A DNA stretch of 64,000 bases. Source: Bryopsis sp. KO-2023 (Eukaryota; Chlorophyta; Ulvophyceae; Bryopsidales; Bryopsidaceae). Position 1 is the stretch's first letter. Each line of letters opens with the position of its first letter. The stretch is from positions 1,488,001 to 1,552,000 of the forward strand of contig BSYQ01000013.1 in assembly GCA_030272585.1 (NCBI GenBank), in the 5' to 3' direction. A program made the translations under genes and the position numbers. The notes under the pieces were generated by a model that searched no databases, had not been told where the DNA came from, and saw nothing but the letters and a program-made list of their open reading frames with translations. Positions 11,154-57,301 of the stretch are shown here, one piece after another.

Positions 11154-14100
11154 TCAGCCGCCAGCTGGTTGTTCAGCTGGTTCGGCAGCTGGATCATCGA
11201 CTGGTTCTGCCACCAAGTCGATCGGAGGCTCGTCGTCCTCATCCACATCCAAAGGAGGGAAATCCTCATCCAAAGGTGGAGGAAGAGGTCCCAAAGACGA
11301 GGGCTCCGAGGATGGACTCCTGCTGGACACGGAAGGACTTTTTCCTTCGTCCTGTTCTGGGTCCTGTTCTCCTTTTGTTTCTGGTTCGGGTGTTCTCTCT
11401 TTTTCCTGCTTCTCATACTCCTCCGCCCACTTTTTCACCAACGGACCCAAGCGCTTCAGGGCAAGGCCTTTCGGAAAGCCCATGTCCCTTCTCAAGCACT
11501 GATAGCACTCAGTTAGAGTCTGGGTCGTGGGTGGAGCCTGAAGGAGGGGCTGGAAGTCTGGCTCCCGCATGTCCAAATGTAGGTCCTTCAGCTGAACCTG
11601 TGGCGGGTCGATTCGCTGTTCCTGCCACACCCCGTATAAGCGCACGAGGATAATCATGAGGTTCCAGTGGGTTCGGCACACCGTGTGGCTCGTGCATGTG
11701 GTGATCACGTAGCTATCCGCCAGCGCCGGCGGCGAATAGCACCACAAACAGATCGGTGGCTTTTCCCCACGCCTGTCCTTGAACCTCTTGGACATGTCGG
11801 CGAGCGCCTCCTCTTCCTCTCTCTCCTTCCTTTTCTTGGGCGCCGACTTTTCGTCGGTCTTTCCACCGGTCTGTCCCCCGGTCAGGTCGCGGATTCTCCT
11901 TGGTTGTGGCTCTGAGATCATATCGTCGGCTACGTCGGGAATTTCGAAATGTCCCGGTGCACGATTTCTGATTCTCTCCAGCGTTTTGTCCACCTGCGTA
12001 TAGTCATACCCGGCTAGCCGGTGGTTAACCGGAACGTTCCCTTTGCCGTAGTAGACAGGCTCCTCTCCGTCTCTGATCGCAGCAGCAGCTCCAGCACCCT
12101 GCTCGATGATGTCGTCCATCGTCGCCCGACAAAGGTTCTCCACATAGTCCCCAAGACGTGCGGGAACGCTGTGGAGCAACCGGCTCATCAACCCGGACTG
12201 TGCCTCAGACGAGTACACAGCCGTTTGCCAGGCCGACCTTTCGTCTGTGGACGTCAGGTGCGGCTGCTGTTTCGTTAACTGCGATTGCAGCTTTTTCTGC
12301 GTCTGGTTCGCAGTGTCGAGTTCCTTTTGAAGCTGCCTCAGCTCCTGTTCGGCTGTTCCCCTCGCTTGTTGAGCGATTTTCAGATCGTGTTCAAGTTGGC
12401 TCACTTGATTGCAGAGTCGTTGAGCTACACCCTCGAACTTTGTCAGGTGCTTCTCTGCTTGATCCGCCCGCGCGCGTTGTGCGTCGCGTTCTGCACGGAG
12501 TTCCAACACATCGTCTTGCAACCGTTGACACCTAGCTTGGAGAGTAGCTGGGTCGGCGTCACGGTCGTGATACGAACGTCCGTCGTATGACACGCGGTTC
12601 GGCCCACTCACCCAACACGTGGTTCGGCCTGACAGTAGTCGGACCGAACCAGCTCACCATCATCATAGCCACACATTAAGGGAGAGGGCCAGGCCGCCTC
12701 TGAGGTGGCAACCCTCAGTTCGGCCTGGAGCCTCACATTCAGCTTAGGGTCCATTAGGACACGGCCAAGGGGCCATTAGGACGCTGAGTTGGATGAAAGG
12801 GTTGGACAGGCTGTCGGCCCGGCCGAATACTTATTCGGCCCGGACCACAGCCTTATTGTAACTTGGACTATTGTAAAGTTCCTTGTTTGAAAGTGTTTCC
12901 GTGCTCTAGACGTAAGTCCACTCGACTAGTCTATTTTGTTCCAACGTTTGTATCAACTGGTTTCGGAGCCGAAGCCGGAACCAAGACCCATACCACCCGT
13001 ATGTCGAACAGCCACCCTACCTCGCCCCAGTCCTCCGCCGGCACACACGAACACCCGACTTCCCGTTATCTCACGGTGCCAGAGGAGCTGGTCGCACCAC
13101 ATTGGAGAAGATTCTATATCGACCAACTGGCCTTTTGCTACGGCGGCCCAAGCGTTATCGAGGGCGTACCTCCCGGACTTGAGGGACCACCTATTCGAAG
13201 GCCGAGCCCCGTACCACCGCCTACCGGGCCGAACGACAACGACGACACAGAAAGTGTCGGAAGCTGTGACTCCTGCTTCACCGAAGAGGAAAGGAACGAC
13301 CCGGAGTTTCTGCGTTTCTACGCTGAAGTCCAGGAGCACCTACGCAACCGGCGGGCAAACTCGGCCGAGGAACCTCTTCGCAATCGGGACCCACGGCTTG
13401 CACACGGAGTCCAACCATGGACCTCATACCGTACGAGCCAGCCGAAGCCATCGCCTATCCCGACGGAGTGGAGGAGATGAGCGCTGGGGACAGTATGAGC
13501 CTGGGGACCGAAGAAGATCCCCCTCCGGTGCAAGGCGTATTTGTGCAAAACAACATCCAGCACAACGTGCAGAACGTGCACCACGTGGAGGTGAACCAGG
13601 ACGAAACATCTATCACTGTGGCCCAGCTGGCGGCCAACACCGAAGAATGGGCGGGACGTACTCAGGCCGAGCTGTACCAAGCACTCAACGAAGTGCGAGG
13701 AGAACTCCATCATACCCGCGAAGAAGCCGAAGCTCGACAATGGCAAGTGGCCAACGAGCAGGCCGAAGCCATGAACACGGCCCTCGAGAACCAGAGAGCC
13801 GAACTGGAGGACCATCACTGGGAGGACCGCGTTCGGTTGGAAGAGGAGTTCATCCGACGGCTCGAGCACCTCAAAGCCGAGAACGGGCACCTTGTGGCCG
13901 AAATGGAAGAACGAATGCACCTGGCCCAAGAACGTGCGGCCGCCAAGGCAGCTCAAGATTTCCAAGACCTTGGAGCCCGGACCGAAAGGCTCACGTTGCA
14001 AGTGGCAGACCAGCGGGCCGCTGTCGAGACGCTCGGGGTCGAAACAAAGTGTCTACGGGAAGACTACCCATCCGTGGACGAGCTCGTGAAGTTATGGTCC

Positions 14101-17100
14101 AAGCAAGTTCCAGCGCAGCCCCAAGTCATTCCTGTGTACATGGCCGGAGCCGGAACCCAAACTGTGACCCAAACTACACAAGCGCCATCCGGACCACCCC
14201 CGTCTTCCAGTTTTCAAGACGTGCCCCTTGTTTCTCCTATCGTCAGCAACGCACCCGCGGTACCGATTCTCGTGCCACCCAGTGGATTACCCAGCCAACG
14301 GCGAGCCGGACCACCACCAGGACCTGTCATTCGAGAGCCCGGTTCTGTACCGACGGGCGGGCCGAGGCCGAGCCGAAGAGACCCAGCGGCCGCCGCAAGG
14401 CCACCCAGCGGCCAGAACCAAGCCACCAATCCTACACCGCCATCCGGCCAAGGACCTCCTATGGCACCACGTCAAGAACCACCCCCTGGACCCAGTCAAC
14501 CACAGGGAGTTGGAGCTGTCGGATTCAATTCGGGAACGGACCCGTTTGCGGGCCTGGGTTCCTATGCCTCAGTTGGACAGCAAGACCCCAACTCCGGATT
14601 CCGAGACGCTCCAAGAAGACGGCGGCCAGGAGGAGGAGGCGGGGACGATGGTGATGGAGGTGGCGGGCCGAATGGACCAGGAGGATCTGGTGGGCCGAAT
14701 GGACCTGGTGGGCCGAATGGACCGGGAGGAGGACCAAATGGACCTGGCGGCGGGCCGAACGGACCTGGAGGTCCCGGAGGACCTGGCGGACCGGGAGGAC
14801 CATTTGGACCACAATTACCCGGAGGGCCACCAGCAGCCGGAGGCAACGGATTGAGACAAGTCAAGATACCAATGCCACGAGCTTTCAACGGCACCGCGAA
14901 TGTCACGGACTGGCTGATGCGCATGGGCCGATGGTTTCGCGCCCAGGCCATTCCAGAAGAGCTATGGCTTCAGGTCATCTGTGCTAACACGGAGGGCCCT
15001 GCAGCCGAATGGATGAATTTGACCGAGCTCAAAGTAATGGAGGGCCGAAGACAGCCATTTGCCGACTGGCGCTCGTGGGCCGAGGAGGCTCGAAAACTGT
15101 TCCAACCGACGACAACCTCTGAACACGCCCGAGTCGAGTTACGAACCCTGAGGCAGACGACCTCAGTAAAGGACTACATCAAGCGCTACAACAGCGTTTG
15201 TTTCAGGATCCCGGATATGAGTGAAGCGGAGGCATATAGCGCATTCACCGCAGGCTTGCGTGAACCGATCCGAAGTCAAGTTGTTGGCTTCATTCGTGAC
15301 GACGTGCAAGCCGCTATCGAAATGGCCGAACGGCTCGATGGTATCCGTGGACTTCATAACTCGAGTGGAGGCCGGGGTGGAGGAGGTCATCAGCGTTGGA
15401 ATCGAAGATCGAGAGTTAACAGTATTGGCGACAAAGCCGGAGATGATCGTCTCAACTACATTGGTGGAAACCGCGGCCGGGGAGGTTCAAGCCGAGGCCG
15501 AGGCCGAGGCCGTGGCCGCAGTGGGGGAAGATTTGGAGGACGAGGAGGTGGAGGCCGATCTACCACACCAAGTGGAAGAGGAGGCCGGGGTGGAATATCA
15601 TGCTACTTGTGCGGAGGAGATCATGGGATCAGGAATTGTCCCAAGCTCTCGGCCGCAAAGCGTTCGATAAACTGAAGGTCCGGGGCGCGAGGCCACCTAC
15701 CCTGGACACAAATGCGGGTGGTATCAGGGCCGAGGTTCCGGAAGATTTTGGGGAGGAGCAAGCAGAAGGAATAGATGATAGAAAAATGACCAAGAGAGTT
15801 ACTTGGCCGGACAAGGCGGAAGAGCATGAAAAACGGATAGACACTAGCTCCGGCTCGCATAGTTCCAATACTGCAGCGCGAGCCGAGTCCCATGGAACAG
15901 GACTCAATGAAGGAGCGGATGATACTGGCCACGCACGGCCTGGGGTATCATCAGGGGAACCACCATCCACTGTACAGCTCGGCCCGCAAGGCAACCGAGG
16001 GATGGACGGTTCAAATTTTTCTCAAGTGCCGGGGGCACTCAGTCGCGCCGACTCTGCAGTGGCCGACAATTTTTCTTACATCGCCAGGACAGGAAACACC
16101 TGTTCCAAAGGGCGGTTTACTGGCTTCGAGATAGCCATTCAAGTTGGAGACCGACCGGTGAAGGCGTATGTGGATAGCGGAAGTTGGGAAAACTACATCT
16201 CAACGGCAACTCAAGCACGACTGGAATTGGAGGCAACCGGAGAGCACCGCACCCTGGTCATGGCGGATGGTTCCAAGGGCTCAACCCGGGGCCGAGCCGA
16301 ACAAGTTCGATTTCGATCGGGCCGAGCCACTTTTGTCGCGGATTTCCATATCTTTCCCGACATGGCATACGAGATGATTTTGGGCATCCCGTGGCTTGTG
16401 GCCGAAAACCCCGATCTCTGCTTTCGGACACGAACAATCTCGGTTCAGCGGGGGAAGACAAGGATTTCTCTTCCTCTAGCTATCTCGGGCAAGCCTCGAC
16501 CCACCGAGACTATGAGCGTGGGCGACATGGAACAGACATCCGCGGCCAAGCTTTTAAAGGATGCGCGTGCTGGACAGGGAGACGTTGTGATGGTAGTGGT
16601 TACCGAAGCCGAGGCCGAACAAAACGATGAACATACCAAAGATGATATCAGCAAGTTGGTTCGGCCCGAGCTCTCAAAAGCGATCACGCAGCTCTTAACG
16701 GACTACAAGCGAGTCTTCGCATCTGACCTTCCTAAAGGACCACCACCGGTCAGGAACGGTCATGAATTCGAGATCGAACTGGAGGAAGGAACGAAGCCGA
16801 TCTTTCGGCCTATGTACAAGCTCTCTCCAGCCGAACTCGCGGAGGTCCGAAAACAGCTCGACTACATGTTGGACCGGGAGCTGATTCGACCCTCAAAGAG
16901 CCCGTGGGGCGCCCCCATCCTTTTCGCCAACAAAAAGGATGGTGGGCTTCGCTTTTGCATTGACTACCGGTGGATCAACCAGCGGACGGTCAAGAACCGC
17001 TACCCCCTCCCTCTCCCTGAAGAGTTATTGGACCGCCTCCAGGGAGCCAAAATCTTCACTCGGCTGGACTTGCGCTCGGGGTATTGGCAGATGCCCATCC

Positions 17101-20100
17101 GGGCCGAAGATCAGGAGAAGACCGCTTTTCGGACCCGTTATGGGCACTACGAATACAAAGTAGTGCCCTTCGGCCTAACGAACGCACCCCCGCAGTTCAT
17201 GGCGATGGTGAACGACCTCTTCCGGGATTTCCACGATAAGTTTCTGGTGGTCTTCCTGGACGACATCATCGTCTACAGTAAAACGGAGGAGGAACACGCG
17301 GAGCACCCTCGGCTCGTGCTGGACAAACTGGCCGAGCATCAGCTCTACGCGAAGGCGTCAAAGTGTTCCATCGCCGTCAAAGAACTGGATTTCGTGGGGC
17401 ATTGGATTTCGGCCGACGGCATCTCCCCTCATCGCAGCAAGACCCAAGCCATTCAAGATTGGAAGCCCCTACAGTCTGTGCCGGAAGTGCGGAGTTTTCT
17501 GGGCATGGTGTCCTACTACCGACGCTTCATCAGGGAGTTTTCAAGGATTGCTGCTCCCATCCAGAAGCTCGTCAAGAAGGACCAAGCCTGGGAATGGGGT
17601 CCGGCCCAGACAGCAGCGTTTCAAGAGCTCAAGGACCGACTCACTTCGGCCCCAGTACTCTTGATCCCGGACCCGGCCAAGCCGTATGTTGTTGCCACGG
17701 ATGCATCGGACTTCGCATTAGGAGCTACCTTAATGCAGGGCAGCAAGGAGGAAGGTTATCAGCCCATTGCATTTTTGAGCCGTTCCCTGAACTCAGCTGA
17801 GCAGAAGTATTCGGCCTACGAAAGGGAACTATTGGGCATCTCCTATGCTCTCGCCCAATGGCGTCACTACCTGGAAGGAGCTCCTGGTGGAACTACGGTG
17901 TATACGGATCACCTCCCAGCTACCCATTTTCTACAGCAACGCGTCCTTTCACGGACTCAAACGCGTTGGTTGAAGTCTGGATCGTTCCAGTCTATCAAGC
18001 CGAAGATTTTATATCTTCCGGGCCGAGCCAATTTTGTGGCCGATGCGCTTTCTCGCAAGCCACAACTCCGGCTCAATGCGATTTTGGGGGCCAAAATCTC
18101 GCCCGGGGAGGCACAAGACTGGCAAGCCGCCATAAAGGAGGACCCTATTCTTCGACCAATCGTGACCCAACTTGAAGAGGGACGAGCAGTGCAGGGGTAC
18201 ACCCTGACCCCAGATGGACTGCTCATGTATCAAGCCAAGGACGTTGGAGCCGAGCCGAAACTCGTTGTGCCGGTTTCTAAACGCCAGGTGGTATTGCACG
18301 ACCACCACGATGTGCCGATGGCGGGACATCCAGGGAAAGCTCGGACAGCCGAGCTTGTGAGCCGAAGACATTGGTGGAGAGGCTGGCGCCGAGCCGTGAA
18401 CCACTATGTCGAATCGTGCCCCACTTGCCAAATGATGAAGACCGAGAATTCTAAGCAGAAAGGGTTGCTACACCCTCTGCCAGTTCCGGCCTACAAGTGG
18501 GAGCAGCTGACGACCGACCTCGTTACTGACTTACCGAAGTCTAACGGGTACACGGCCGTGGCTGTCTTTGTGGATCGGCTCACGAAGATGTGCAAGTTCG
18601 TCCCGTGCACCAAGGAGGTTTCGGCGAAAGGATATGCCGAGCTCTTTCTCTCCAAAGTATTCCCCACCTCAGGGATACCGGAAGTTATCGTGTCTGATCG
18701 AGACCCAAGATTTACGAGCCAGTTCTACAAGGAGTTGTTTCGGCTCGTGGGCACCGATCTAAGGATGTCGACCGCTCACCATCCGCAATCTGATGGACAG
18801 AGCGAAGTTACAATCCGAACACTGGAGAACTTCCTTCGGCCCTACATTGAAGCAAGGCCGGAGACATGGAGCGAATACCTCAGCACGGCCGAATTTGCTG
18901 CAAACAATTCGGTCAACGCCAGCACCAAATACACCCCTTTCTACCTGATGTATGGGCAACACCCAAGAGGCCTGGAGGCCGACCGGCCGAGTACCAACGT
19001 GGAGGCGGCCGAGGCCATGGTGAGCCGAATGAACCGAGACCTGGAGGAGGCCAAAGCAAACTACGCTTCGGCCCAGGAGACCATGTGTGAGAGCGCCAAC
19101 AAAAAGAGGCGACATGTGGAATTCGCAGTGGGACAGGAGGTTTGCCTCCGAAGTGCCCACCTCCCTCTGGCCGTAACCAAGCACATTCCGGCCAAGGTCA
19201 GGCGACGGTTCATCGGGCCGTTCAAGGTTGAGGCCGTAATATCACCAGTGGCCTATAGGCTCGACCTCCCACCAGGCTGGAGGCTTCACCCTACATTCCA
19301 CGTCTCCAAGCTCAAGGAATACAAGCGGTCCGAGGAGTTCGTGCGGGATGCACCTCCCGGCCCGGCTCTTATCGATGAGCTGGATGGAGAAGAGGAATAC
19401 GAAGTGGAGGCTATTGTCAGGGAGAAAGGAAAGGGAAGAGGAAAACGTTATTTGGTTTGCTGGAAAGGATACCAACCCCATGAGGCAACATGGGAGCCGA
19501 AGGAGAGTCTGACACATTGTTCAGATCTGCTGGCCGAGTTCGTTGCACGAACGGGCCGAGCATGACTGGAGGAAGCTTCTGATGCAACTGACGAGGGTGA
19601 TGGGGGAGTTGGAAGTCATGATGACGAACTGATGAGGTCAACCTCGGCCGGTATGGGACGGTACCTCAAACGAGGCGGTACCTCGGAAGTTCGGAGGGAA
19701 TTCCCATCCCTCGTCACATCAGAGTGTACCTTTCAGTTGCGCACTGTGTCTGACCGGTACCTCATCGGCGAATTTAAGGAGAAGTAACGAAGGCGCTACA
19801 GAAAGCCTTTGTTTGATTGAGTCAGAGAAAAAAAAAGGAGAGAGAGCCCACACGGCCGAACACAGAAAAGAAAGGAAAGAGGAGCCATGGATCTGACAGC
19901 GGCCAACTTGGAGCGTTTTCTGCAGGACGCGCGACAGTCCACTGAGCAGAAGAACAAGCTCGAGGCCGAACTTGCCGAATGGCAAAATAGGGCCAACGAG
20001 GCGGAGAAGCGGGCAAAAGCCGCTGAGGAGAAAGTGGCTCAGTTGGAGGAACAGCTGAAAACGCAGCGCTTGGATGCGTTTCGACAAGCAGCAGTATGGG

Positions 20101-22542: not shown

Positions 22543-23142
22543 TCTCTTTTTGTGTTGGCTGCGCTTAGTTCTCCGACTAGTCTCCGACTTTTCTGTATGC
22601 GCGCCGAGAATAACCAGGACAAAATGATCGCAAGTCCGCTTTAAGATACGCTAGGCGTATTAGCTAACGTACCTTGGTAACGTGACACTCTATGGAGGTC
22701 GCCGTCACCACACGGGTTTGTGCCTATTTGATTTTACCCTAACTTGCTTATGTCAACTCAGTTCCACCTGCGGCGCAATCACGTGACCTCCAGGTCGGAC
22801 ATTAACCCATCACTTGATCCAATGTCCCCATCACCTGTTGTCAGTCGCTATGAGCGTGTGAGTTGTGCGTTAGGTAAACCTCCCCGGAAAGAAAACTGAC
22901 CCCTAGCCCGTCCTGCGAACCGTTCACAGTTCTGTCACGGGAAAAGATAGCAACCCGTTCGCCGGAAAAGATGGAAACTTTCCCTAGGCTTTTCCGGGAG
23001 TTCTACTTGGTGCTCTTTTCCTAAGTCTTTCTGGTATCCCATCTGGATAGCGTTCCAAATCGACTTTCTCGGCTTAATATTTTTCCCCCAGCTGGAAGGA
23101 TAGTATTAAGTCGAGCGTGAACAGAGTGGTAATGATCCCTGT
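22543..23142 (-). other. Spacer between G0 pol and ORF3
   Basis: About 600 nt without a supported ORF, the longest of the four pol-ORF3 spacers. Confidence 0.45.
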
Positions 23143-26100: not shown

Positions 26101-27261
26101 TACCTTTTCCACATCGGGCTGGAGATAAGCGGGTGTGGTTCCAGTAGCGTTTAAACGCTCTTCTGGAATTCCCGGATATGGATACTGCATGAGATGTGCC
26201 ATATCTTCCGGGGTGGTTGGTCGCACAACCACAAGGTATGCCTGATTAACTTCTGGACTGTTCTTCACGAGCGAGAATAACTTCTTCGCTGAGACTGTAT
26301 CAATAGCCGGTGCTAGGTGCTGTAAGTAATCTGATGGTCGTTCCTTCATAGGAACAGTTGTCCATCCAGCACCCACTGGAACTTTGAGCGTGCCTGTTGC
26401 AAAGTCCAGTTTGGGATTGGTCTGCATCAACCAAGGAAGCCCTAGTATCATGTCATATGAAAGGTTTGGGAAGACGTCTGCGGAAAGGGTTGTGGTATAA
26501 GTACCCATCCTGAGCTGCAAGTCTTCGCATCGCCGATCAAGTGAACATAGGGTTCCGTCCGCCAAAGTGACTCCCTTTTTACACTCGGTTGTTTCGAGTT
26601 TCAGTCTCGTGACTAGTTTCTTGGTAATGTAGTTCTCCGTTGCACCACAATCAACATAGGCGGAGATCGGTACTCCTCCTAATCTGGCTCGGATCTCATA
26701 TCCCATAAATTTCAAATGGTTAGGACCTCCTAGTGGTAACATACGCTCAGAAGGTGAATACTGACCTTCATCCACTTTTTGTCCTCTACCTGTTCCCTGA
26801 ACAGGGGCTGCTGACTCGTCAGTTGGTGGTGAACGAGTGGCAGGCTTATTTGATTCCCTTGCGGGTTCCCTTCCTTCCGGACTTCGTTTCGTTCCTTGAG
26901 GCGGGAACGATACCGAATTCTCAGTTCCTTCAGGACTACCAAGGTCTCCATGAACAGAGTCGACAGGTTCCGAACTTGATTCTGAACTTGTCCTAGTAAG
27001 CGTGCTGCACTTACTGGATCGAGTTTCCAACTTAGCACTCATAATCGATCCCTCTGCACCTTGGGTAGCATTCTTTTCTATTTCCCCTTGTGCTCTTTTA
27101 TTCACTTCTGCATTTCGAGCTAACCTTTCTTTTCTAAGAAGTTTCTGGCGCTGCTTATATCTGTGAAGGCGTGCCCTTCTGCGTTTCGCCGAACGAGTCT
27201 GGGCTCTGTTCATCCGGCTTTTTCGTTTAACCATTTCTTGAACTTTTCGCCCTCTGGACAC
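23143..27261 (-). pseudogene. pol: G0 Pol with one premature stop before the chromodomain
   Basis: The frame runs from 27261 (no ATG until 27233) to 23143 with one TGA at 23548-23550. Domains in order: basic Arg/Lys-rich N-terminus, protease with IDs YVDCGATENYI (about residue 199), RT with VFIDDILVF (about 587), RNase H with VITDASGTAYG (about 737), integrase with HHCC zinc domain and DDE core (TTDLVTDL, VSDRDPRF, TDGQSEV), then the IN C-terminal part FVGPF and a chromodomain (YLILWKGYDLMESTWEP). The stop replaces an Arg codon found at the same place in G2 and G3 (PPKIRRRF, PKLRRRF), so this is a nonsense change that would remove the chromodomain. Otherwise the frame is open. Confidence 0.88.
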
Positions 27262-29759: not shown

Positions 29760-29765
29760 CCTCTC
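29682..29765 (-). repeat. 84-bp inverted repeat, right copy (G0)
   Basis: An exact reverse complement of 10888-10971. It overlies the first codons of the gag frame. Confidence 0.9.
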
Positions 29766-29876
29766 ACGCCCCTTGGAACTAACGAGTTCCAGATCTGTGG
29801 GATTTAGTAATCCCTAGGGTCAGATCTTTGGGGGGGTTGCGCGAGTTCGCCTGTGGAGTGCGCCTGGCCTCGACCA

Positions 29877-29888
29877 GCTCCGAAACCA
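29877..29888 (-). promoter_or_regulatory. G0 primer-binding site
   Basis: TGGTTTCGGAGC on the minus strand, two bases inside the 5' LTR, identical to the sites of G1 and G2. Confidence 0.7.
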
Positions 29889-29890
29889 AA

Positions 29891-44900: not shown

Positions 44901-47900
44901 CCGCTCTTGTGCGGTTGCATACTGCTGCTTTGCCTGCTGCAGTTGCTCGTCCATTCGTTTCACCATTTCGGTTGCCATTTCGGACTCTTCTTTCGCCGTT
45001 AACTTTTTCTGCACGGTAATTTGTCCCATATGCTGCCCATACAACAAGTGTGCTGGGGCATAGCCGGTTGACACATTGCGGGAGTTGTTGGCAGCAAATT
45101 CCGCTGTCGCCAAGAAATCAACCCAGCGGTCTGGATACCGCTCCACATAAGGCCGCAAAAAGTCTTCCAACACCCGAATAGTAACCTCTGACTGCCCATC
45201 TGTTTGTGGGTGGTAGGCTGTGCTCATTCGGAGTTGGGTTCCCAGAAGTGAAAATAAAGACCGCCAGAAGGAACTTGTGAATCTGGGGTCTCGATCGGAA
45301 ATTATCACTTTGGGGAGGCCGTAGTGTTTGTATATTTTGTCCACAAACAACTGAGCATATTCCGGGGCGGTTATTTCCTTGGTGCAGGGTGCGAAGCGAA
45401 CGTACTTGGTTAACCGATCAACAAATACCGCGATGGCGGTGAACCCACGTGACTTTGGTAAATCAGTCACGAGGTCAGTGGTGATCTGTTCCCACTTTGT
45501 TGTCGGTATCGGGAGTGGATGCAGAAGCCCTTTCTGCTTCGTCGTATCAGCTTTTGTCCGCTGACAGACAGGACATGTCCGCACATATGCTTGGACATCC
45601 TTTCCTACTCCTTTCCACCAGTAGTATCGCTGTAGCACATCCGATGTCCGGGCGGCACCTGCGTGTCCAGCACTCGGAACATCATGGAACTCCCCCATAA
45701 CCTTTTTCCGGTATCCATTTGGAACCACTAGTACTTTGTCTGAGGTGGGAGTTGCTTGATAATACAACCAGCCATCCTCGAACGAAAGTTTCGTGGGTTT
45801 ACCCTCTTGGATTTTCGCGACTTCCGCTTGCAGTTTTGGATCTGCTGCAATAGCGGTCTTCCATGCATCCGCTTCATCCACCACCCAGGCGGACAAAGCA
45901 TGAATTTGATCCTGTGAATCAGGAAGGCTTCGGGATAACGCATCCGCCAGTACATTGGCTTTACCAGGCACATAGACGATTTTTGGATCTATGGAATCAA
46001 AATACCCTGACGTGTACCATCGGGATTGTGTCCGCGACATTTTAGCTTGGGTCATGAAGTGGGTTATCGGCTGATGGTCTGTCAGAACCGTAACCTCCCC
46101 AGGCGCTCCTTCGAGGTAATGCCGCCATTGGCTGAGCGCATATGCTACAGCCCCCAGCTCCCGCTCATATGCGGAATATCGTGTCTCAGCTGGTTTTAAT
46201 CGTCTTGAAAGGTAGGCTATTGGCTGTAGCCCCTTTCCATGGTCCTGACACAGAACTGCTCCATATGCAGTTCCTGATGCGTCCGTTATTACGGTGTACC
46301 TAAGAAGCGGATCGGGTAGGAGAAGTATGGGGGTGCGGGTGATCTTTTGCTTGAGTTTGCTGAAGGCTTCGCGCTGAATAGGCCCCCATGTCCACACATG
46401 ATTCTTTTTGATCAGATCATGTAAGGGTCCTGCAATCCGCGCAAACTCTGGTATAAACTTACGATAGTAAGATACCATGCCCAGAAAACTTCGCACATCC
46501 CCAACTGAGCTCAACTCCTTCCATTCTTGAATAGCCCGCACTTTATCACTCATTGGTTGCAGGCCTTTTCCTGACAAATGATATCCCAGATAATCGGTCT
46601 CGCTGACCCCCACTTCACACTTGCTCGCTTTCGCGTAGAGCTTGTGTTTGTGTAACCGCTCGAATACCTGTTTCAAATGATCGACATGTTCTTCCACTGA
46701 ATTGGAAAACACCAGAATGTCGTCAATGAAAACAACCACAAAGTGGTCCAAAAACTCCCCCAACAAATCCTGCACCATAGTTTGAAACTGGGCCGGACAG
46801 TTGGACATTCCGAAGGGACAAACGAGGAACTCGAAATGCCCGTATCGTGTGCGGAATGCAGTTTTTGGGGTATCCTTTGGCCGGACTGGAAATTGCCAGT
46901 AGCCCGAGCGGAGGTCGATCTTGGTGTAGATCTTTGCTTTAGCGAGCCGGTCCATTAACTCTTCGGGGAGCGGAAGTGGATAGCGGTTTTTAATGGTGTA
47001 GTGGTTGATCCATCTGTAATCAACACACATCCGCAGTCCGCCGTCTTTCTTAGGGACAAAGAGTATGGGAGCTCCCCAGGGACTCTCTGACGGCCTAATC
47101 TTCCGTTGCTCGAGGAGATAATCCACTTGTGTCCGAACTTCATCCAATTCAGCCGGAGAAAGTTTGTACAGGGGACGGTGGATTGGGCTCATACTCTCAT
47201 CCTCAAGGTCGATCTTAAATTCATGACCCTTGCGGACGGGAGGTATGCCAGGCGGGAGATCTTTTGGAAAAATGTGGCTATATTCCTCCACCACAGAGCG
47301 GATATCCGGGTGCATCTGATCATGCAGCAACTTCGGTACCTCCGTCTCTTGTGGTGTGTTGGTGCCCGCTGAAGTTTGAAGGCTATCAACGGTTACCCCC
47401 TCATACGGATATTGCATCAAGTGATTGCTATCCGTGGGGTCAGATTCACGCACCACCACCAAGTAAGCCAAACTATCTGTGGCTTCAGTTTGCTTCTTGA
47501 TGTAGCGGAATATCTTCTTGTGGGTGATGAGAGGTGTGGTTTCATTCGCAAGTTGAAGATAATCAGTCGGTCTTTCCTTTACCGGTACTGTTATCCAACC
47601 TTGACCTTGGCGAATGTTGATAGTTCCCTGTGCAAAGTCTATGGACGGGTTATTGGCGATGAGCCACGGTAACCCTAACACGATGTCATACGTGAGATGA
47701 GGAAAAACATCCGCAGAAAACTGGGTTTTGTATCCGCCCAACTGCATGTTGATGTTTCCGCATCGTTTGTCCACATTGCAAACAGATCCGTTGGCTAATG
47801 AAACGGTCTTATTACACGAGGAGAACTCTAACCCCAAACGATCCACAAGTTTCTGCGCTACATAATTTTCCGTAGCTCCACAGTCCAAATAAGCGGAGAT

Positions 47901-50900
47901 TGAAACTCCCCCTATCCGCCCCTTAAGCTCATACCCCATGAACTTAAGGTGGTGATTATTTACCAGCGGGTTAAAACTGTCTTGAAGGTAATCCCCACCT
48001 TCAACCCCCGGTTGTTTCTTTCTGTCCGATGCCTCCCTTGCATCGGCGTCAGACGGAACCCTTGGGCTGGTCCGGTCTAAACTTTTTACACTTCCTTCCG
48101 AAGCCTGTTTCTCTCCACAAGGCGGGACAGATTCCAGGTTGCTATCTCCGGAGGAACTTCCAGAGTCTTCATGTACTGAACCAACACTTTCCGCCAACTC
48201 TCTGCCGGAAGTGCTTAGGATGACCGTACTTGAATCATCCATCCGCTCTTTGTCACCAAGTTTTGTACTCATCAGCGGATTTTCAGCCCTCTGGGCGGGA
48301 TTTCTTTTTGACTCTTTCTCGGTCTTTTTATTCCCCTCTCGTTCTCTTGCTCGTGACTCCCGGAGCTTCTGACGTCTGCGATGTCTATATCTTCGGCGTC
48401 TGGCTCTTTTTCTTCTGGCCGCATGGAGTGAAGTCTCCTCTATGCGGCGTGATCTTTTAGCCATTTTTGAAAAGTTGGGCCTTTAGGACATTTTCCAAAG
48501 CCATGACCCACTTCACCGCAGATGTAACATGCGCCTCCGCCTCTAGCTCCGCCTTGTTGCTGCCTTCCGCCACCACCTCGATTTCGTCCGCCACCTCGTC
48601 GTCCGCCTCTTCCGCGGCCACGGCCGCCTCCACCTCTGTTGCCTCCTCCCATTTGCTGATTTTGATCTTGGGGTGGAGGTGGTGGTTGCGGTTGCTGACC
48701 TTGCATTTGCTGGTTCTGATCAGCTTTGGGCTTGTTTTTCCAATTCCAGTTCCATCGCCCTCGTCCGCGACCACGTCCGCGGTTGTTTTGAGATTGGCCA
48801 CCCAACGAATCGATTCTTTCGGCAGTGACTATCGCCGCTTCCACTCCTTCTGTCACCATTGTAACAACTTGATGTCGGATCTGGGGCCGTAATCCGTCAA
48901 CAAACGTCAAGTACTGCTCCTCCTCCGTCATATTCGGAATTCTGAGTATGAGATCCCGAAATGCGTTAATGTAGGAACGAACAGTCCCCGTTTGTTGAAG
49001 TTTCCGCAGCTTCCTACGCGAAACATCGGACATTCTTGTTGGTTCGAAAGCAATAGCTAACTCTTCCACAAGTTGTACCCAGTCCTGGAACATCGGACGA
49101 ACTCCTTCCCGAATCCGCATCTCTTGCATATTCCGCCATGTGGCGGCTGAACCAGAGAGATTTGTGCGGAATACTTTAAGCCAAACAGACTCATCCAAAT
49201 CATAAACTTTACAGAAGTTGGTGAGTTCTGCCTGCCAATCCCGAATCCAGCGATCTCCAGCGCCAGTATACGGTTTCGGCATCGGGAATTTGACCGCATT
49301 TGGAATGTGAAGCAAACGATTTTCTGGACGTGCATAACCCATAAAATCGGGACCCCCGCCTGGGGGACCAGGAGGTCCGCCTCCTCCGCCACCTCCACCA
49401 CCACCATCTCCAGGACCGCCTCCTGGGTTCCTAGATGGTCCTTCTCTTCCTCCACCAATATGTGGTCCAGGTGCAGACCCACGGCCACTTCTGTCCGATG
49501 GGCCTCCGCCACTTCCATCACCGGAACCATCATCATCTCCACCTCCGCCTCCTCCGCCTCCTCCGCCTGCGCGTTGAGGAATACGCGGATAGGATCCCCA
49601 TCCAACATAGGGGTTTCCGGATGATGGAGCTCCGTATACATTCACGGAGTGACCTAAGATAGAAGGCCGAATGTATGATGCTCCCATGGCATAATAGCCG
49701 GGTGGTGAAATCATTGATGGATGTGATAACACTGGCTGAGAAACTGGTGGTGGCATGGGTAATGTTCTAGGTGGCTCGGGTGACGTGGTTGTTGGAGTTG
49801 TCAGCGGAACAGTTTGTACCACGGGAGAAGCCTGCGTACGCTGTGGCGGTTGTGCTTGCTGTAATACCGCTGGTGGTCTTGTATTTGGTGTTTGTCCAAA
49901 CACAGCGCTAGGCCTCACGATCGGCCTAGGTACATTTCCCTGTCCGCTGATTGCACTGCCTCGCCCCACTCCAGGAATAATGACTGGGGGTGATGCAGGT
50001 CGGGTAATCGGTCTATTTGCCCGCGGGAATACTGGTGGTATTGGCGGGAAACCTACTGAATCCGGGGCAAAGCCGGATGAGGTTTGGGGAGGTTGCCCAA
50101 ATGAAACTTGTACTTCGGACAACCTTGGTGGTTGTGCCACCGTTCTGGTTCCCGCTCCCGCCATAGCAGCCACAAGAGGTGTTTGTTGAGCAGCGGATGC
50201 CATTTGTGTGGCAACTGCTGCAGCATCTTTCTTCCGCCAAAACTCAAAATTCGACGTGAACTTTGTGTCCGCTACATCCTCAAACACCTTCTTTAGCTCC
50301 TGCGCTGTTTCCGGATCTTGTAGCATTTCTTGTAACATTTCCCGCGGCTCTTTGCTCCTTGTTGAGCTTCTCGATCTGCTTCTCCTTGAAGACCGACTCT
50401 GACTTCTTTTCAACTCCTCCATTTCCATTTGTAATCTAGCCGCCGCTTCTTTCGCAGCCGCTGCCTCCTTTAACAAATAGGCTACTTCCGCATGATGCTG
50501 TGTTTGAAAACTTTCCGCTCTGTCTTTAGTCGCTTCAAGATCATGCTTAACACGAATGAGTTCTTTGAACTGTTTACTCTGACCCGCATCCACTAGTGCT
50601 TGGGTCTCTCTCAGTTCTTGTTGAACCGTATCCAACCCCCAAAGGGCGTCGGCATGTTGCCGGTCAAACTCTTCTTCGAGTTTCCTTCTTTGCTCATCCG
50701 TGTCCGCTACTTGTTCGGCCAATATCCGCTGAGCCTCTTTGGCTTCGTCCACCTCTTTCTGGGCGACATCACGGATATTCGCCAAGCCAGCTTCCATTTG
50801 GCTGAGCCTCCCCTTGGCTGCAGCATCCAGATCTTGTATCCGCTCATCCAACCTTTCACTGAGCTGTCCTTCGATCTGGTGATGGCGGGACTGTAGAGTA

Positions 50901-53900
50901 GAGTCCAACACATCATGTACTTGGGAAGCCATGCTTGAACAAGCTCCCTCCATCCGACTATCAAGGTGCTCGGCGACCTGGGCTGTCCGCTGGGCAGCCT
51001 CCTCGGACAATTGGCTGTATAACCGCTCTTGCGATTCATGGAGATCGCGCTCCTGCAGGCCGTCATTGTGCACGTGCAAGGTCTGGTTATGCACGTTCAC
51101 TTGGCTCTGTTGCAGGTGCTGCGTTTGTTGATTGATGAAGACTCCCGGCTCTTCCTCCATCTCCTCATCAAACTCCGGGCCAATGTCCGCTTCCTCATCG
51201 CCTGCTTCCTCCACCATGTCCGGGTGCGCGGGGATACCGTATGCCTGTAATGGCCGGTCCATTTCTGCCTGTATTGGCAGTCCGACAGCAGGTAATTCCT
51301 GGGCGACGATCAGCGGATATAGCGGCGGGCCATCTGGGGCGTCGCGCTCTTGCTGATTGTCTTCGATACCGTATTCCAGGTATAGCTGCTCGTCGTTTCC
51401 GCTCATGGTGGATGTCTTGATTCGTCGGCGGTAAAATCACGTGTCCGTTTGGTGGATTCCGTTGGCGGATAATCCACGTGACTAATTGGTCACTCTTTGT
51501 CAGCGGTTTCTGGCAGCGGTTTCTGGCACGTAATTCCTGGCGGAAACGTATTCGTCCGCAGAAACGTCCGCTGGCAGACTCGTTTTGTCCGCTCTGCGGT
51601 AACCGCGTTCAGTGTCGACAACTCTCCGACAAACGGAAGTACTACTACGCCGTGCTGTGGTCGTAGCGTCCAAGGATCTATAGATCCTGTGATTTTGGGA
51701 GGGATGATCGAGCGCAGCAACGTGCGTTCTCTTTCGTCCAGCGTTTGGTTGGTGCGCAGCAACACGAAGTAGGTTCCAGACACGAGGGGAAACCTTCTTC
51801 GACCTAGCCGACCCTGATCTTTTGCACCTCGACTGCAAAATCTCCTGTCGATCTCTTCCACTAAGTAGACTCGACTTGCAGGTAGGGTGCTTCGGCTCCG
51901 AAACCAGTTGTTAGGCCCCTGTAGGTTTTAGTGAAGTCGTTGCTGAGTCTGAGACTGGGGTCACACACACTACAAACCAGAGAATTAATTTTACAAGGTG
52001 TTCTCTCTGAACTTAACCCCCTAGAACCCGTACTAACCCGTACTACACACTCGTACTGCAAAATGAGTGCGACAACGTAGTGCGACAACGTATCAGTCAC
52101 TAGTCACAGGTGTGAAGCTACGTGATGTTGATCCAGTTGCCTTGGTGAACCTGATACACAGTTACGTGGAAACTGACGTGTTCGTCATTTATGTAGGTAC
52201 ATGGGGTATCTTGCGCCAACCAGGCGTTCCGAGGAGGACATGAGCGAGCTTCTGACACTCCGGCCGGGGCAGGTGTGTCCTTGTTGTCCTTGTTTTTATT
52301 ATTGTTTTTGCGACTTCTTCGTTATTCTCTCTTCTTAGCATAAAGTGATCTCATGTTTTTTTTTAAGTCATGATTTTCTCGGTAATTTGATCCTATTTGG
52401 TGTTTTTATAGGACCCCAACTGGACGCCCATCGATCGTGACACGCACAGGACACGTGAGGAGTATCTGCACTTTGCAGCGCTCGCGGACACGTCTGCCTT
52501 GGACCCCGTCGCTGCGCATGTCCGCGGACGATCGGTTCTCCACGACCTTCCGTACTTCGCACCGGAAGTACTGAAGGTCGTGGGGGCCTCTCATTTGATG
52601 CTCTTTGGCCTCGTCAAAGACTTCTTATACGAGGTATGTGTGTTTCTCTTGCTTGTGTTTGATATATACTATGAATGCAAAAGGCTATTAATTGTGTTGT
52701 TGAAACCATAGTTTTTATAGAGTAAAGTTGTTCCCCACTCACTTCCTAAATACACAAACTCAAACTCGACTAACATCCCTCAGCCAAGCGGCGCTTTGAC
52801 TTGCGCGATCCACATGTGTGACTAAACCGCCCCATCCGATACTAATGGGTTTTATAGTGTGTTGATCGATAGTAACATATGTGTGATTGCCAAGATCCGG
52901 AGCCGTCTCCTTGGAGCTTCGCGGCGTGCAGACCTCGCCCAGTACCGGAGGGCACTTGCCGGCGTCCGACTCCCAACAGATTTTGGGGGTCTGGTGATCG
53001 ACATCTGTGCTGACAGGAAACAGCACACGATGTACGATTACGCGTTGCTGGTTCGGTGAGTTCATTCTTCAATAAGGAAGCAAAATGTGTCTGAAACGAA
53101 ACAGGAATACCAAAGGTCTCACTTTCATGTACGCTATACGTGTAGGAGTTATGGGGCTTTCGTGTTCCATTCCTGCCTGCATAGAGACGAGTTCGTGGCC
53201 TGGGACCAGCTCTGCACTGCCGCCACCCACTATACCTCCCACCGAGCCATGGCTGGAGCTACCATGGATGACTGCATCGAGAGAGGCCGTGTGATTCGGG
53301 ACACGATGTACCAGTATGCTCGGTGAGCGACGTTGTGCGGGTGAAAACATTGGCGATTTCGTTTACTGTCATGAGGTTTTCCTTGTTCTTTCGATTGCGA
53401 CAATACAAAGGCGACGATTATTCAGTGAATAATATTCACGTCTTAATTTTCACGTTTACAGGAACGTCCAAACCCTTTTTGGGGCGGGGATGTGTACCTT
53501 TAACCTCCACAAAATCATTTGTGTGGGTTATCGGCAAGAGAGCGTACGTGGGGCGATTTCACGTTCGGGGGAGTCGTGGGTCGAGCGAGCGGTTGGACAC
53601 ATCAAGCGTGTTTCCGCGGGACGTGTCAAGAGATGTGCGGGAGAAATGATTGCAAACGATGTTCTCTCCGACATGTGAGAACTACAGCCAAGTCTCCACC
53701 ACTTTCGTATGCTCAAACTAAGTGAACCCAAGAAAAGCAGATAAACATGTTTGTACTATTCCTTTCTTTATGTTTTCGAAGTGTTGAACGATTCAATTTG
53801 TGGTTTTAAAGGGCGTTGAGGGCAAACGCAAACATGCTTTCGCAAGACGAGCAAAGTGTGGTGGACGCTATCATTACTCCCCCGCCGAGGAAGCCGTTGG

Positions 53901-54665: not shown

Positions 54666-54871
54666 TGTTGGGTGTTTCGTTCTTTCTTTATTTTCATTTT
54701 TGTCCTTTTTTGTGTTATGAATTGGCGGCCGTAACATTTTGTCTATGTTCTTCAACATAACGGTATATTGCGAGTTCTTTTGTATTAACGGTCACGAAGC
54801 TACACTTGAAGCCCAACACTCGGATAAACTTAGAATCGCAAGGATGAAGCCCAATTAGTAAGGAGATCAAC
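54666..54871 (+). other. T1 3' region after the transposase stop
   Basis: AT-rich sequence with no gene and no CACTA terminus or T1 motif recognised. It ends where G3 is thought to begin. Confidence 0.4.
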
Positions 54872-55291
54872 TGATAGTGAAGCTTGTGGGTGACGCAATA
54901 GTGGTCGGCTGTGTTGGTTGGATTCGTGATAACTTGCTGGTTAACGCAAGTATACTTGTGGGGTTTGTTGGTTTAGACAACTCTCTAGCTAGCGCGGTTG
55001 TGAACGCTACTAGAGCACTTGGGTTGGGAAGTGATTGCGTCAGGCAAACACTTAACACACACACACACAAACACACACACAAGCGGGAACACACCAATCC
55101 CACGAATCCCGAGTTCTTACAAAATAAAGTGAACGTCAAAACAACGAGTGGGCCTCTTAAGTACCCCTAAGTGTAGTACGCTGACGCATGCCCCAAACTC
55201 TGGGTCTAATCTGTCTTACTCGCGAACCCACATGCGTCAGCCACCCTCGGCTCTATCCCAAACTACCTCGTATAGCGCTAAAAGACTAACA
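54872..55291 (-). repeat. G3 3' LTR (left limit provisional)
   Basis: It ends at CTAACA (55291) next to a purine tract. It contains an (AC)n microsatellite in the middle, as the G0 LTR does. Confidence 0.5.
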
Positions 55292-55310
55292 TACGCCCCC
55301 CCCGCAAAAA
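55292..55310 (-). promoter_or_regulatory. G3 polypurine tract
   Basis: A C8 run plus GCAAAAA on the plus strand, next to the inferred LTR. Confidence 0.6.
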
Positions 55311-55486: not shown

Positions 55487-57301
55487 TTAACGCTGTTCCT
55501 GCGCTTGCGCTTGCTGGATAGCACGCTGCTCCTGCGCATGCGCTTGCTGCACTGCACGATACCGGACACAGGGATCAAATGCGGCAGCCACCCTCTTGGA
55601 CTTTAGGAATGGCAGATCCCTTGTGATGCCGGACACCTTGAGCTGCCGCTTCACACACATGTTGCAGTGTGGCAACTTCTCGTGCTCAGCCGGGAACGGA
55701 GGGATTTCTTCGAACGTCGAGCGTGTCAGCTTCAACATATGGGCAGGTAGAGAGAATGGGGAGACGGTGGCGATGAACTTGTTGTCCACTTCCGCGACTT
55801 TTTGGACCGCCGTGACGATACGCCCCAGCATCGAGTATGCCAACCAATGAGCATCACACACGAGGTGATACCCACAAGGAAGGACGGAATACTTCTTCTG
55901 CGTCAGCCGCTGAGCACTTGCTTGCATTGGGCTTCTCCCGCACCAAATGCACATGGGCAACTCGTGAAAGTGCCGGTTGCCGCGGTAATTTTGCAAGGCT
56001 CGGTCCCTGGGGTTAGTATATTGGACCTTCGGCCATTTCTCTGACGCAGTGATGGGGTTGCAAGCCTCCTCGATATCCTCCCGTGACAGGTTCACTTCGC
56101 TGGGTGCAGCATCCACTTTGTCCTGAGCAGCCGCCCTTAGTCTTTTGAGCTTAACCTTTTCTCGGAAAGCCCGAAGTGCTGCTTCTGTTGGAGCTAACTC
56201 CAACGGTGGATGGACCACACGCTGAACCTCTGTCACCTGGCTTGGCCCTTCATCATTCCTTATTTCCCCGTCCTCCAGTTCAGAACTAGGACCTTCGAGC
56301 CTAGGAGGTGGACGGCCGAAGTCAATTTCTTCGTTAAAATCCAAGTCCAAAAGCTCCTCCTCTCTCATGTCGAATAAGTCCTCCCCCGGTGCTATTGCGG
56401 TAGCCTCATCTCCGGGAGTCTGAACTGTTGGCGCTGGTTGTGAGGGTGCTGGAGTCTTTAATGCGGCAGCCTTTAACTTGAGTAACAAGTTGGCTCTTGC
56501 TGCATCTCCAGGCATACGATCCCTCGGTGGCTCACCACCTTCATCGTCACCGTCCTCTCGCCTTCTCTTTCCGTGTGGATCTTCATCCCTACACGGCGAG
56601 CTTGGGCGTTTGTTTTTCCCTTTCCCCTTGCCCTTGCTTGAGCCTCCCGCATCATCGTCCTTAGACGGTTCCAGATCAAGTGTTGCGTTTGACAACAGAA
56701 CTTGGACTTGGCGATCCAGTTCTTCGCGTACCCGTGGTGCTGGTACCGCCGGGTTCAAACGCAGCATCTTGTCCGTTGTTTCGCTCTGCACTTGAAGTTT
56801 TTCAGAGCCGTCTCTGAGGGACTCTCCCAGCAAATCGATCTGCAGCTCTTGTTCTGCCAATTCCTTCTTAAGGTTGTTGGCTGCTGCACTCCACGCGGTT
56901 GCTACAGCTCGCTGCAGCGTTTCCTCTACCGCGGTAAATCGATCCACTATTCCCCCGAGAGCTTGTTTACGGAGGTCATTCTCACGATGGTTAGCCATCA
57001 TGTGAGATTGGAACCTTTGCTTTTTCAGCTTCATGGCTTCCAATTTTTCTTCCAAGACCTTGGTCTTGTCCTCCGCTTCTTTCTTTTCCGCCTCCGCCTT
57101 ATCCTTGGCTTTCTCCGCTGCCTCCTTCGCAGCCTCAGCTGCTTTCGTCCGGTCACTCAACTCTGCGAGCTGCCGGGTTAAGGCCTCATTGTTCTGCAGC
57201 ACCTCCTCTGCGGTCGTAACAAAGTGCTGCAGCTCCTCTTCTTTTTGTGCTACCTCCGCTTCCAACCTCGCAATAATTGCGGCGGGTGTATCGGCAGCCA
57301 T
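55487..57301 (-). CDS. G3 ORF3: coiled-coil / RING-like protein
   Basis: 604 aa from the ATG at 57301; the frame is open further upstream but without an ATG. About residues 10-110 form a coiled coil very rich in Ala, Glu and Lys (AKEAAEKAKDKAEAEKKEAE). A basic patch KGKGKGKNKRPSS and a long acidic/Pro linker follow. The conserved domain starts near residue 449: C-x2-C-x21-C-x2-H-x2-C-x2-H-W, about 58 residues, then C-x2-C (CNMC). The tail is a Gln/Ala/Glu repeat (QQAQAQEQRA). No signal peptide or membrane segment. Same gene position and layout as in the other three elements. Confidence 0.85.
   Translation of the reverse strand: MAADTPAAIIARLEAEVAQKEEELQHFVTTAEEVLQNNEALTRQLAELSDRTKAAEAAKEAAEKAKDKAEAEKKEAEDKTKVLEEKLEAMKLKKQRFQSHMMANHRENDLRKQALGGIVDRFTAVEETLQRAVATAWSAAANNLKKELAEQELQIDLLGESLRDGSEKLQVQSETTDKMLRLNPAVPAPRVREELDRQVQVLLSNATLDLEPSKDDDAGGSSKGKGKGKNKRPSSPCRDEDPHGKRRREDGDDEGGEPPRDRMPGDAARANLLLKLKAAALKTPAPSQPAPTVQTPGDEATAIAPGEDLFDMREEELLDLDFNEEIDFGRPPPRLEGPSSELEDGEIRNDEGPSQVTEVQRVVHPPLELAPTEAALRAFREKVKLKRLRAAAQDKVDAAPSEVNLSREDIEEACNPITASEKWPKVQYTNPRDRALQNYRGNRHFHELPMCIWCGRSPMQASAQRLTQKKYSVLPCGYHLVCDAHWLAYSMLGRIVTAVQKVAEVDNKFIATVSPFSLPAHMLKLTRSTFEEIPPFPAEHEKLPHCNMCVKRQLKVSGITRDLPFLKSKRVAAAFDPCVRYRAVQQAHAQEQRAIQQAQAQEQR

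What the first reader, a model, noticed from the sequence alone, without database searches (positions are those of the whole stretch)
11154..57301. A third ORF with a RING-like Cys/His domain after pol in four divergent gypsy elements
Seen directly: G0, G1, G2 and G3 each carry, after pol and in the same sense, an ORF with an N-terminal coiled coil, a basic patch and acidic/Pro linker, and a C-terminal domain with ligands C-x2-C-x(12-21)-C-x(2-3)-H-x2-C-x2-H-x(about 50-58)-C-x2-C. The N-terminal parts have diverged almost beyond alignment while all eight putative ligands stay, which suggests selection. Known: RING fingers have C-x2-C-x(9-39)-C-x(1-3)-H-x(2-3)-C-x2-C-x(4-48)-C-x2-C, so this is RING-like with His at ligand six and a long last gap. 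Inference: an element-encoded ubiquitin-ligase-like or TRIM-like protein acting on host silencing factors, integrase or particle assembly. I know of no chromovirus lineage described with such an ORF, and there is no membrane segment to make it an env.
Basis: partly seen in the sequence, partly recalled or inferred. Interest (0 to 1): 0.88.

Follow-up and report, generated by a model that had tools for sequence, protein, structure and literature searches.

The report
RING-like third gene in gypsy retrotransposons
Many families of gypsy-type jumping genes in this genome carry, after their usual two genes, a third, selectively maintained gene whose product ends in a zinc-binding-type domain resembling the RING domains that steer protein degradation; what it does is not known and can now be tested.

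Summary
G0-G3 each carry an ORF3 after pol whose C-terminus has eight Cys/His ligands (C-x2-C-x12-21-C-x2-3-H-x2-C-x2-H-x50-60-C-x2-C): four places in the window, all ORF3, and 0 of 20,000 shuffled ORF3s. G0's ORF3 is cut by G1; its quoted first ~15 residues are G1 LTR. The genome holds many open copies and at least ten further families. A second group, after the pol of other chromovirus types, has C3HC4 order, Leu/Val before C2 and Trp after C6. dN/dS for whole ORF3 is 0.15-0.24 in seven locus pairs. At six of nine other sampled loci no ORF3 was seen. AlphaFold2 gives one layout for two domains 15-16% identical. RING kinship is suggestive, not proven: no Pfam hit over cut-off, weak structure matches, group I lacks usual E2-contact residues, and groups I and II do not align beyond chance. 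Group I has a TATA-like element about 115 nt upstream, not reproduced in group II. Ubiquitin-ligase activity is unproven.

The parts
11154..12567 (-).
   Evidence: 47 of 92 own-genome matches cover >=460 of 470 residues without a stop
11496..11750 (-). G0 eight-ligand Cys/His motif
22179..22542 (-). stretch on the other side of G1 whose open frame is the probable N-terminal part of G0 ORF3 (the pieces were not joined)
   Evidence: inference
10698..30070 (-). G0 outer element; LTRs about 10698-10871 and 29888-30070, 95% alike, flanked by ATAAA
23143..27261 (-). G0 pol in two open pieces: PR, RT, RH, INT (23548-27261) and chromodomain (23143-23526)
12568..22178 (+). G1 element; LTRs 12568-12955 and 21791-22178 (388 bp, 100%), flanked by GGTCG
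13417..15675 (+). G1 gag (Retrotrans_gag)
15600..19565 (+). G1 pol: PR, RT, RH, INT, chromodomain
19566..19886 (+). G1 pol-ORF3 gap, 321 nt; TATA-like AATTTAAG at -116 (weak)
19887..21110 (+). G1 ORF3, 407 aa
   Evidence: 27 of 99 own-genome matches are full length, 89-100%, without a stop
20610..20861 (+). G1 eight-ligand Cys/His motif
   Evidence: AlphaFold2 of 20574-20996, pLDDT 87.8, pTM 0.81
41817..52095 (-). G2 element; LTRs 41817-42002 and 51909-52095 (99.5%), flanked by GTCAC
42153..44033 (-). G2 ORF3, 626 aa
   Evidence: 36 of 77 own-genome matches cover >=600 residues at >=94% without a stop
42270..42530 (-). G2 eight-ligand Cys/His motif
   Evidence: AlphaFold2 of 42156-42566, pLDDT 82.4, pTM 0.79; all eight ligands in 29 of 29 copies examined
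44034..44354 (-). G2 pol-ORF3 gap, 321 nt; TATA-like TATAAACT at -118
44355..48464 (-). G2 pol: PR, RT, RH, INT, chromodomain
48440..51406 (-). G2 gag
54868..55292 (-). G3 3' LTR, 425 bp, 99.5% to its partner beyond the window end
55487..57301 (-). G3 ORF3, 604 aa from the ATG at 57301
   Evidence: 73 of 73 scored own-genome matches full length or one residue short, 98-100%, without a stop (242 candidates, 73 scored)
55655..55951 (-). G3 eight-ligand Cys/His motif
57302..57750 (-). G3 pol-ORF3 gap, 449 nt; TATA-like CTTATAAG at -122
57751..61491 (-). G3 pol: PR, RT, RH, INT, chromodomain
61749..64000 (-). G3 gag, running beyond the window end (not tested against Pfam)
   Evidence: by eye

Best explanation
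ORF3 is a genuine third gene of a broad, recently active chromovirus (chromodomain Ty3/gypsy) assemblage. It encodes a soluble protein: usually a coiled-coil-like N-terminus, then a variable basic/acidic/Pro linker, then a C-terminal cross-brace zinc domain of RING type with an enlarged stretch between ligands 6 and 7. Shown by computation: the gene, its place after pol, its copy number, purifying selection, the conserved ligands and, for two domains, a shared predicted layout. Inferred: the coiled coil makes it an oligomer, the basic patches take it to the nucleus, and in group I it is transcribed from its own TATA-type promoter between pol and ORF3, so it is made without Gag-Pol processing. 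Most likely function (inference): a RING-type adaptor or E3-like factor that brings host ubiquitin-pathway or chromatin proteins to the element, to relieve silencing or to protect or guide Gag or integrase. Group II, with the C3HC4 order, would be nearest the ancestral E3-like form; group I has altered its E2-facing residues and may work as a scaffold.
For: Gene: motif 4 of 4, 0 of 20,000 shuffles; open full-length or nearly full-length copies 36 of 77, 27 of 99, 73 of 73 and 47 of 92 scored matches. pN/pS 0.152 over 29 stop-free G2 copies, domain 0.145; dN/dS 0.15-0.24 for whole ORF3 in seven unsaturated pairs of loci from four families, domain 0.06-0.16 in the six pairs that differ there. 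Position after pol: 14 of 17 group I rows, 232-449 nt, and five group II loci. RING-like: ligand order; same layout in two models 15-16% identical; 17 of 31 weak Foldseek rows for the G2 model are RING, RBR, U-box or PHD proteins; group II profile vs host RINGs 54.5%, 1 of 100 nulls as high, PHD 0.2%; group I core with the loop left out 39-69%, nulls 1, 2 and 4 of 60; group II has L/V before C2 and W at C6+5 in 5 of 5. Own promoter: best TATA-like match of 10 of 13 group I rows in one 50-nt window, reached by 1 of 400 shuffles.
Confidence: 0.4

Rival explanations
1. ORF3 is a nuclear regulator without ligase activity: an oligomeric zinc protein that binds histones, chromatin proteins or element DNA/RNA and works as a transactivator or anti-silencing factor, in the manner of an accessory regulator with its own internal promoter.
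For: Basic clusters by a loose pattern in 13 of 13 ORF3s; acidic-aromatic, activation-domain-like segments in G1, G3, L039 and L061 (at most 2 of 200 shuffles each); own TATA-like site in group I; top VIA-align rows for the G2 model are PHD fingers; usual E2-contact residues not kept in group I.
Against: The acidic-aromatic segment is weak or absent in the other 12 of 16 ORF3s scored, or lies in the folded domain (L045). PHD profile similarity is nil. No DNA- or histone-binding residues identified. Localisation untested.
Confidence: 0.3
2. ORF3 is a particle or assembly factor: coiled-coil oligomer that joins Gag, genomic RNA or integrase through its zinc domain.
For: Coiled-coil-like N-termini (coiled-coil-type profile matches below cut-off; N-terminal heptad period in 7 of 13); gag of G2 and G3 also looks coiled (by eye).
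Against: It is not part of the Gag-Pol frames and lies 232-449 nt after pol in group I, so it would need separate expression in the right amount; no CCHC knuckle. An earlier argument that it occurs only with separate gag and pol frames was dropped because gag fusion was not checked; the odds were lowered from 0.2 for that reason.
Confidence: 0.17
3. ORF3 is an env-like gene.
For: Position after pol is that of env in retroviruses and errantiviruses (recalled).
Against: No hydrophobic segment: maximum 19-residue Kyte-Doolittle mean 1.42 over 20 ORF3s (of G0 only the C-terminal part).
Confidence: 0.02
4. ORF3 is a captured host fragment that hitch-hikes without function.
For: A gene-like frame with the same motif lies away from any pol seen (L053, two copies in a segmental duplication), so such a domain can exist without the element.
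Against: dN/dS 0.06-0.35 in whole ORF3s, N-parts and domains of seven locus pairs, pN/pS 0.152 in the G2 family and ligands kept across many families.
Confidence: 0.03

Closest known systems
[quoted passage not shown] section 5 and passages read)
   Same: Survey of gypsy elements of fungi, mostly chromoviruses, whose Figure 3 legend lists an extra ORF of unknown function
   Different: The text read names neither the element nor the product; figure and supplementary tables were not seen. No zinc domain is described in the text read; the majority of full-length elements there have one or two ORFs.
Burro giant gypsy elements of planarians (described in PMC6431247; passages seen)
   Same: Gypsy-type elements with extra motifs tied to ubiquitination and apoptosis, including a protein with RING Zn-finger motif, proposed to meddle with host systems
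   Different: Giant elements of animals; the passages seen do not describe a small separate ORF3 with a C-terminal domain of this kind
RING-HC (C3HC4) E3 ligase domains
   Same: Group II has the C3HC4 order, L/V before C2 and a Trp after C6; group I has a predicted beta-beta-alpha layout and Pro after C7 in 15 of 20
   Different: C5-x4-C6 in group II, His as ligand six in group I, 39-60 residues between ligands 6 and 7, no Pfam match over cut-off
Accessory domains of other LTR elements: orchid gypsy m6A demethylase (PMC9289625, search listing with start of abstract only), dUTPase in basidiomycete gypsy elements (PMC2864245, section 5)
   Same: Extra domain fixed in a Ty3/gypsy lineage
   Different: Enzyme domains of other kinds (recalled)
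Foamy virus Tas with its internal promoter (recalled, no call)
   Same: Accessory regulator expressed from a promoter inside the element
   Different: Unrelated protein; here the promoter is only a TATA-like match in group I

Membership tests
Chromovirus (chromodomain Ty3/gypsy) | PR-RT-RH-INT order in pol | tested here: met
   G1, G2, G3 and G0 pol, Pfam
Chromovirus (chromodomain Ty3/gypsy) | C-terminal chromodomain | tested here: met
   PF00385 E 2.2e-13 to 3.5e-12 in all four window elements; in the other loci judged by eye
   Group I has His as ligand six and 39-60 residues before ligand seven; group II has C3HC4 but C5-x4-C6
RING domain | Match to a curated RING profile | tested here: not met
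   Best zf-RING_5 E 0.039 and Prok-RING_4 E 0.03, not over cut-off; none in group II at E <= 1
RING domain | Profile similarity to host RINGs above controls | tested here: inconclusive
   Group II 54.5%, 1 of 100 nulls; group I whole domain 3.5%, loop left out 39-69%, 1-4 of 60 nulls
RING domain | Cross-brace fold | tested here: inconclusive
   Layout fits in both models; structure matches weak; coordinates and zinc geometry not available
RING E3 ligase | E2-contact residues | tested here: inconclusive
   Group II L/V before C2 and W at C6+5 in 5 of 5; group I I/L/V before C2 in 2 of 20 and R after C8 in 3 of 20. Which residues contact the E2 is recalled
RING E3 ligase | Ubiquitin transfer | not testable with these tools
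   bench assay needed
PHD finger | C4HC3 order and spacing (recalled) | tested here: not met
   ligand 4 is His and only two residues separate ligands 4 and 5
PHD finger | Profile similarity to host PHD fingers | tested here: not met
   2.8-3.0%, 0.2% and 92 of 100 nulls as high
PHD finger | Structure match | tested here: inconclusive
TRIM protein | N-terminal RING, then B-box, then coiled coil (recalled) | tested here: not met
   Cys/His domain lies at the C-terminus; no B-box in Pfam scans at E <= 1
Env protein | Transmembrane segment | tested here: not met
   maximum Kyte-Doolittle mean 1.42 over 20 ORF3s

The most novel reading that the evidence does not exclude
An ancient accessory gene of chromoviruses, present before the split of deep pol branches, encodes a RING-family E3-like factor expressed from its own promoter that disarms host silencing; the elements thus carry an equivalent of retroviral accessory proteins, but with their own RING domain, and one copy (L053) may have been taken over by the host.
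Probability: 0.2. Interest if true: 0.87.

Novelty: new variant of a known kind. Interest (0 to 1): 0.64.

Why it matters
Extra genes beyond gag and pol are described in only some LTR retrotransposon groups. Here one kind of third gene is found across many families in a single genome, kept by selection, and not seen at six sampled loci of another chromovirus branch. If it acts on ubiquitin or chromatin, it would give a countable, testable system for an arms race between retrotransposons and their host. Even without that, it gives an annotation rule: frames with this motif after pol are element genes, not host zinc-finger genes.

Tried and rejected
Homologues elsewhere: two searches of the 5.8-billion-protein set with ORF3 domains found none (242 and 1,227 candidates). 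A control with G2 pol found 7,881 relatives among the 7,954 candidates scored; the 120 listed are mostly plant, alga, animal and environmental entries, with relatives of 66-75% identity on short contigs, and none is named as a basidiomycete. The empty ORF3 searches therefore say little about other fungi. Four scans of viral contigs (G2 pol, L099 ORF3, G1 pol, L045 domain) gave no relative. PDB sequence searches were empty or chance.

One search was wrong: the script took the first C-P-x-C for ligands 7-8; its group I scores are not used and one search replaces it.

Activation-domain idea: holds for four of 16 ORF3s, not general. Heptad test: the best window lay in the N-terminal part in 7 of 13 ORF3s, in the C-terminal domain in 5 (G1, G2 and G3 among them) and in the linker in 1, so the coiled coil rests on sequence character and sub-threshold profile matches. 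Internal promoter: not reproduced in group II. The -135 to -85 window was chosen after looking; the scan statistic does not use it, but the 13 rows are related to each other. The TATA matrix is approximate and recalled.

ORF3 lack: nine loci were sampled from the 150 scored RT matches. At six (L094-L097, L100, L101) no frame of ORF3 type was seen in 3 kb that begins near the end of pol. This was judged by eye on sense-strand frames of 100 aa or more, of which those under about 140 aa were shown only in part, and the script's motif would not have caught the group II pattern. In four of the six (L096, L097, L100, L101) the stretch runs into coding sequence of another element; LTR ends were not mapped. 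Their open pol frames are longer (1432-1781 aa against 1387-1400 for the three loci with ORF3), but whether gag is fused was not checked.

pol tree: 22 rows, 16 with and 6 without ORF3, 138 columns, unrooted, long branches flagged; L050, L104, L105 and L106 not included. One origin is consistent, not shown.

Judged by titles, starts of abstracts and passages of PMC2774666, PMC2864245, PMC6338049, PMC10799480 and PMC6431247, none described a chromovirus ORF with a RING-like domain. The library holds only open-licence papers.


Full report
WHAT IS THERE. I take it to be a fungus, probably a mushroom-forming basidiomycete, from the character of the elements (inference, not tested). Four Ty3/gypsy elements are seen. 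G1 (+) has 388-bp LTRs that are 100% identical and is flanked by GGTCG. It sits inside G0 (-), whose LTRs are 95% alike and flanked by ATAAA. G2 (-) has LTRs 99.5% alike, flanked by GTCAC. G3 (-) has a 425-bp LTR pair, 99.5% alike, of which one lies just beyond the window. All four pols carry protease, RT, RNase H, integrase and a chromodomain, so they are chromoviruses.

THE THIRD GENE. Each has an ORF after pol with the eight-ligand motif. The motif occurs in 4 places in 35,977 residues of six-frame stretches of 100 aa or more, all in ORF3, and in 0 of 20,000 shuffled ORF3s. Intact relatives exist: full-length or nearly full-length matches without a stop are 36 of 77 for G2, 27 of 99 for G1, 73 of 73 for G3 and 47 of 92 for the G0 part. 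These counts are lower bounds by the tool's own note.

MORE FAMILIES. G1's ORF3 also matched families at 28-56% identity. I fetched 11 further loci; all carry the motif. Six more were then fetched and all carry it, two of them more copies of families already seen (L054, L055). Still more distant are L060 and L061 and L106. In 14 of 17 group I rows the end of pol is seen 232-449 nt before the ORF3 ATG; in the other three it was not found in the stretch held. L053 has the motif without a pol nearby.

A SECOND GROUP. To see which families lack ORF3, I took 3 kb from near the end of pol onward for nine loci of the RT search. Three (L098, L099, L102) have a different ORF3 with C-x2-C-x12-15-C-x2-H-x2-C-x4-C-x40-41-C-x2-C; at six (L094-L097, L100, L101) none was seen, by eye and with the limits given under Tried and rejected. 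Two more of the second kind, L104 and L105, follow yet another pol type. Over these five, exactly eight Cys/His columns are invariant and they spell C3HC4; Leu or Val precedes C2 and Trp lies at C6+5 in 5 of 5. The L099 search gave 127 matches. In a tree of pol C-termini, the 16 rows with ORF3 form one side of a branch with 100/100 support against the 6 without; the tree is short, unrooted and has long branches.

SELECTION. Over 29 stop-free G2 copies pN/pS is 0.152, and 0.145 in the Cys/His domain; the end of pol in the same copies gives 0.411 at very low divergence. Choosing stop-free copies biases this downward. Seven unsaturated pairs of loci, from four families, give dN/dS 0.15-0.24 for the whole ORF3; the domain gives 0.06-0.16 in the six pairs that differ there, the N-part 0.15-0.35. 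Two more distant pairs (G1-L039, G2-L049) are saturated at synonymous sites over the whole ORF. All eight ligands are kept in 29 of 29 G2 copies. So the gene is maintained. Diversity along the G2 copies changes sharply, from 0.004 per site in pol to 0.073 in ORF3, which suggests exchange between subfamilies.

PROFILES. Twenty host RINGs and twelve host PHD fingers from the same genome served as yardsticks. Group II against RING: 83.7% with three sequences, 54.5% with five, 1 of 100 column-shuffled nulls as high; against PHD 0.2%, 92 of 100 nulls as high. Group I as a whole does not align to RING (3.5%); with the long loop left out it reaches 39-69%, with 1, 2 and 4 of 60 nulls as high, against about 3% for PHD. 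Group I against group II gives only 9.5%, with 21 of 100 nulls as high. RING-likeness is therefore fair for group II, suggestive for group I, and common origin of the two is an inference from position and ligand order.

FUNCTION. Of 18 host RINGs parsed, 16 have I, L or V before C2, 18 have Pro after C7 and 13 have R or K after C8; of 20 group I domains, 2, 15 and 3 do. That speaks against a standard E2 contact in group I; group II keeps more of it. There is no membrane segment in 20 ORF3s. Basic clusters are common. In group I the best TATA-like match of 10 of 13 rows falls in one 50-nt window around -115 of the ATG; 1 of 400 dinucleotide shuffles did as well. In six further ORF3s, five of them group II, only two best matches fall there and both are weak. 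I therefore favour an oligomeric RING-type adaptor or E3-like accessory factor, separately transcribed in group I; rivals are a nuclear regulator without ligase activity and a particle factor. None has bench support.

NOVELTY. [quoted passage not shown] ubiquitin-related motifs in planarian Burro (PMC6431247, passages). The ten literature searches listed under Tried and rejected showed no chromovirus ORF with a RING-like domain; subscription papers are outside that library. I file it as a new variant of a known kind.

The claim that families without ORF3 have fused gag-pol was withdrawn (not tested), and the particle-factor rival was lowered from 0.20 to 0.17 because that was one of its supports. 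No other odds changed.

Noticed in passing
window 373-4982: Element with split direct repeats (373-577 with 4524-4728; 4401-4527 with 4856-4982), an RT-RNase H frame (1324-3342) and an overlapping 799-aa frame without a Pfam match: looks like a Ngaro/DIRS-type element (name recalled).
   Followed up: partly
window 32173-33210: hAT transposase C-terminal dimerisation region on the minus strand.
   Followed up: no
window 31393-32067 and 34788-35123: Two minisatellite arrays, one with alternating 26- and 70-nt spacing, one of 56-nt units.
   Followed up: no
L053 (C12:1363631-1364416) and L058 (C8:2549019-2549801): Gene-like frame with coiled-coil-like stretch and the same Cys/His motif, with no pol seen by eye in the 8.4 kb read around it; two copies in a segmental duplication of at least 5.5 kb, 99.4% alike. 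Host ancestor or domesticated ORF3. A tRNA-like stretch lies in its putative intron (by eye).
   Followed up: partly
L009-L036 and L038, pol end to ORF3: Diversity between 29 copies of the G2 family varies along the element from 0.004 to 0.073 per site, which suggests recombination between subfamilies.
   Followed up: partly
ORF3 of G1, L039, L040, L041, L044, L052: The C-terminal ends share a short basic motif of the type G/P-P-x-T-R-S/L, and a basic patch followed by an acidic-hydrophobic stretch with E-A-x-E recurs in the linker of several (by eye).
   Followed up: no
gaps of G1 and G2 between pol and ORF3: Both gaps are exactly 321 nt long although their sequences differ; probably coincidence.
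   Followed up: no
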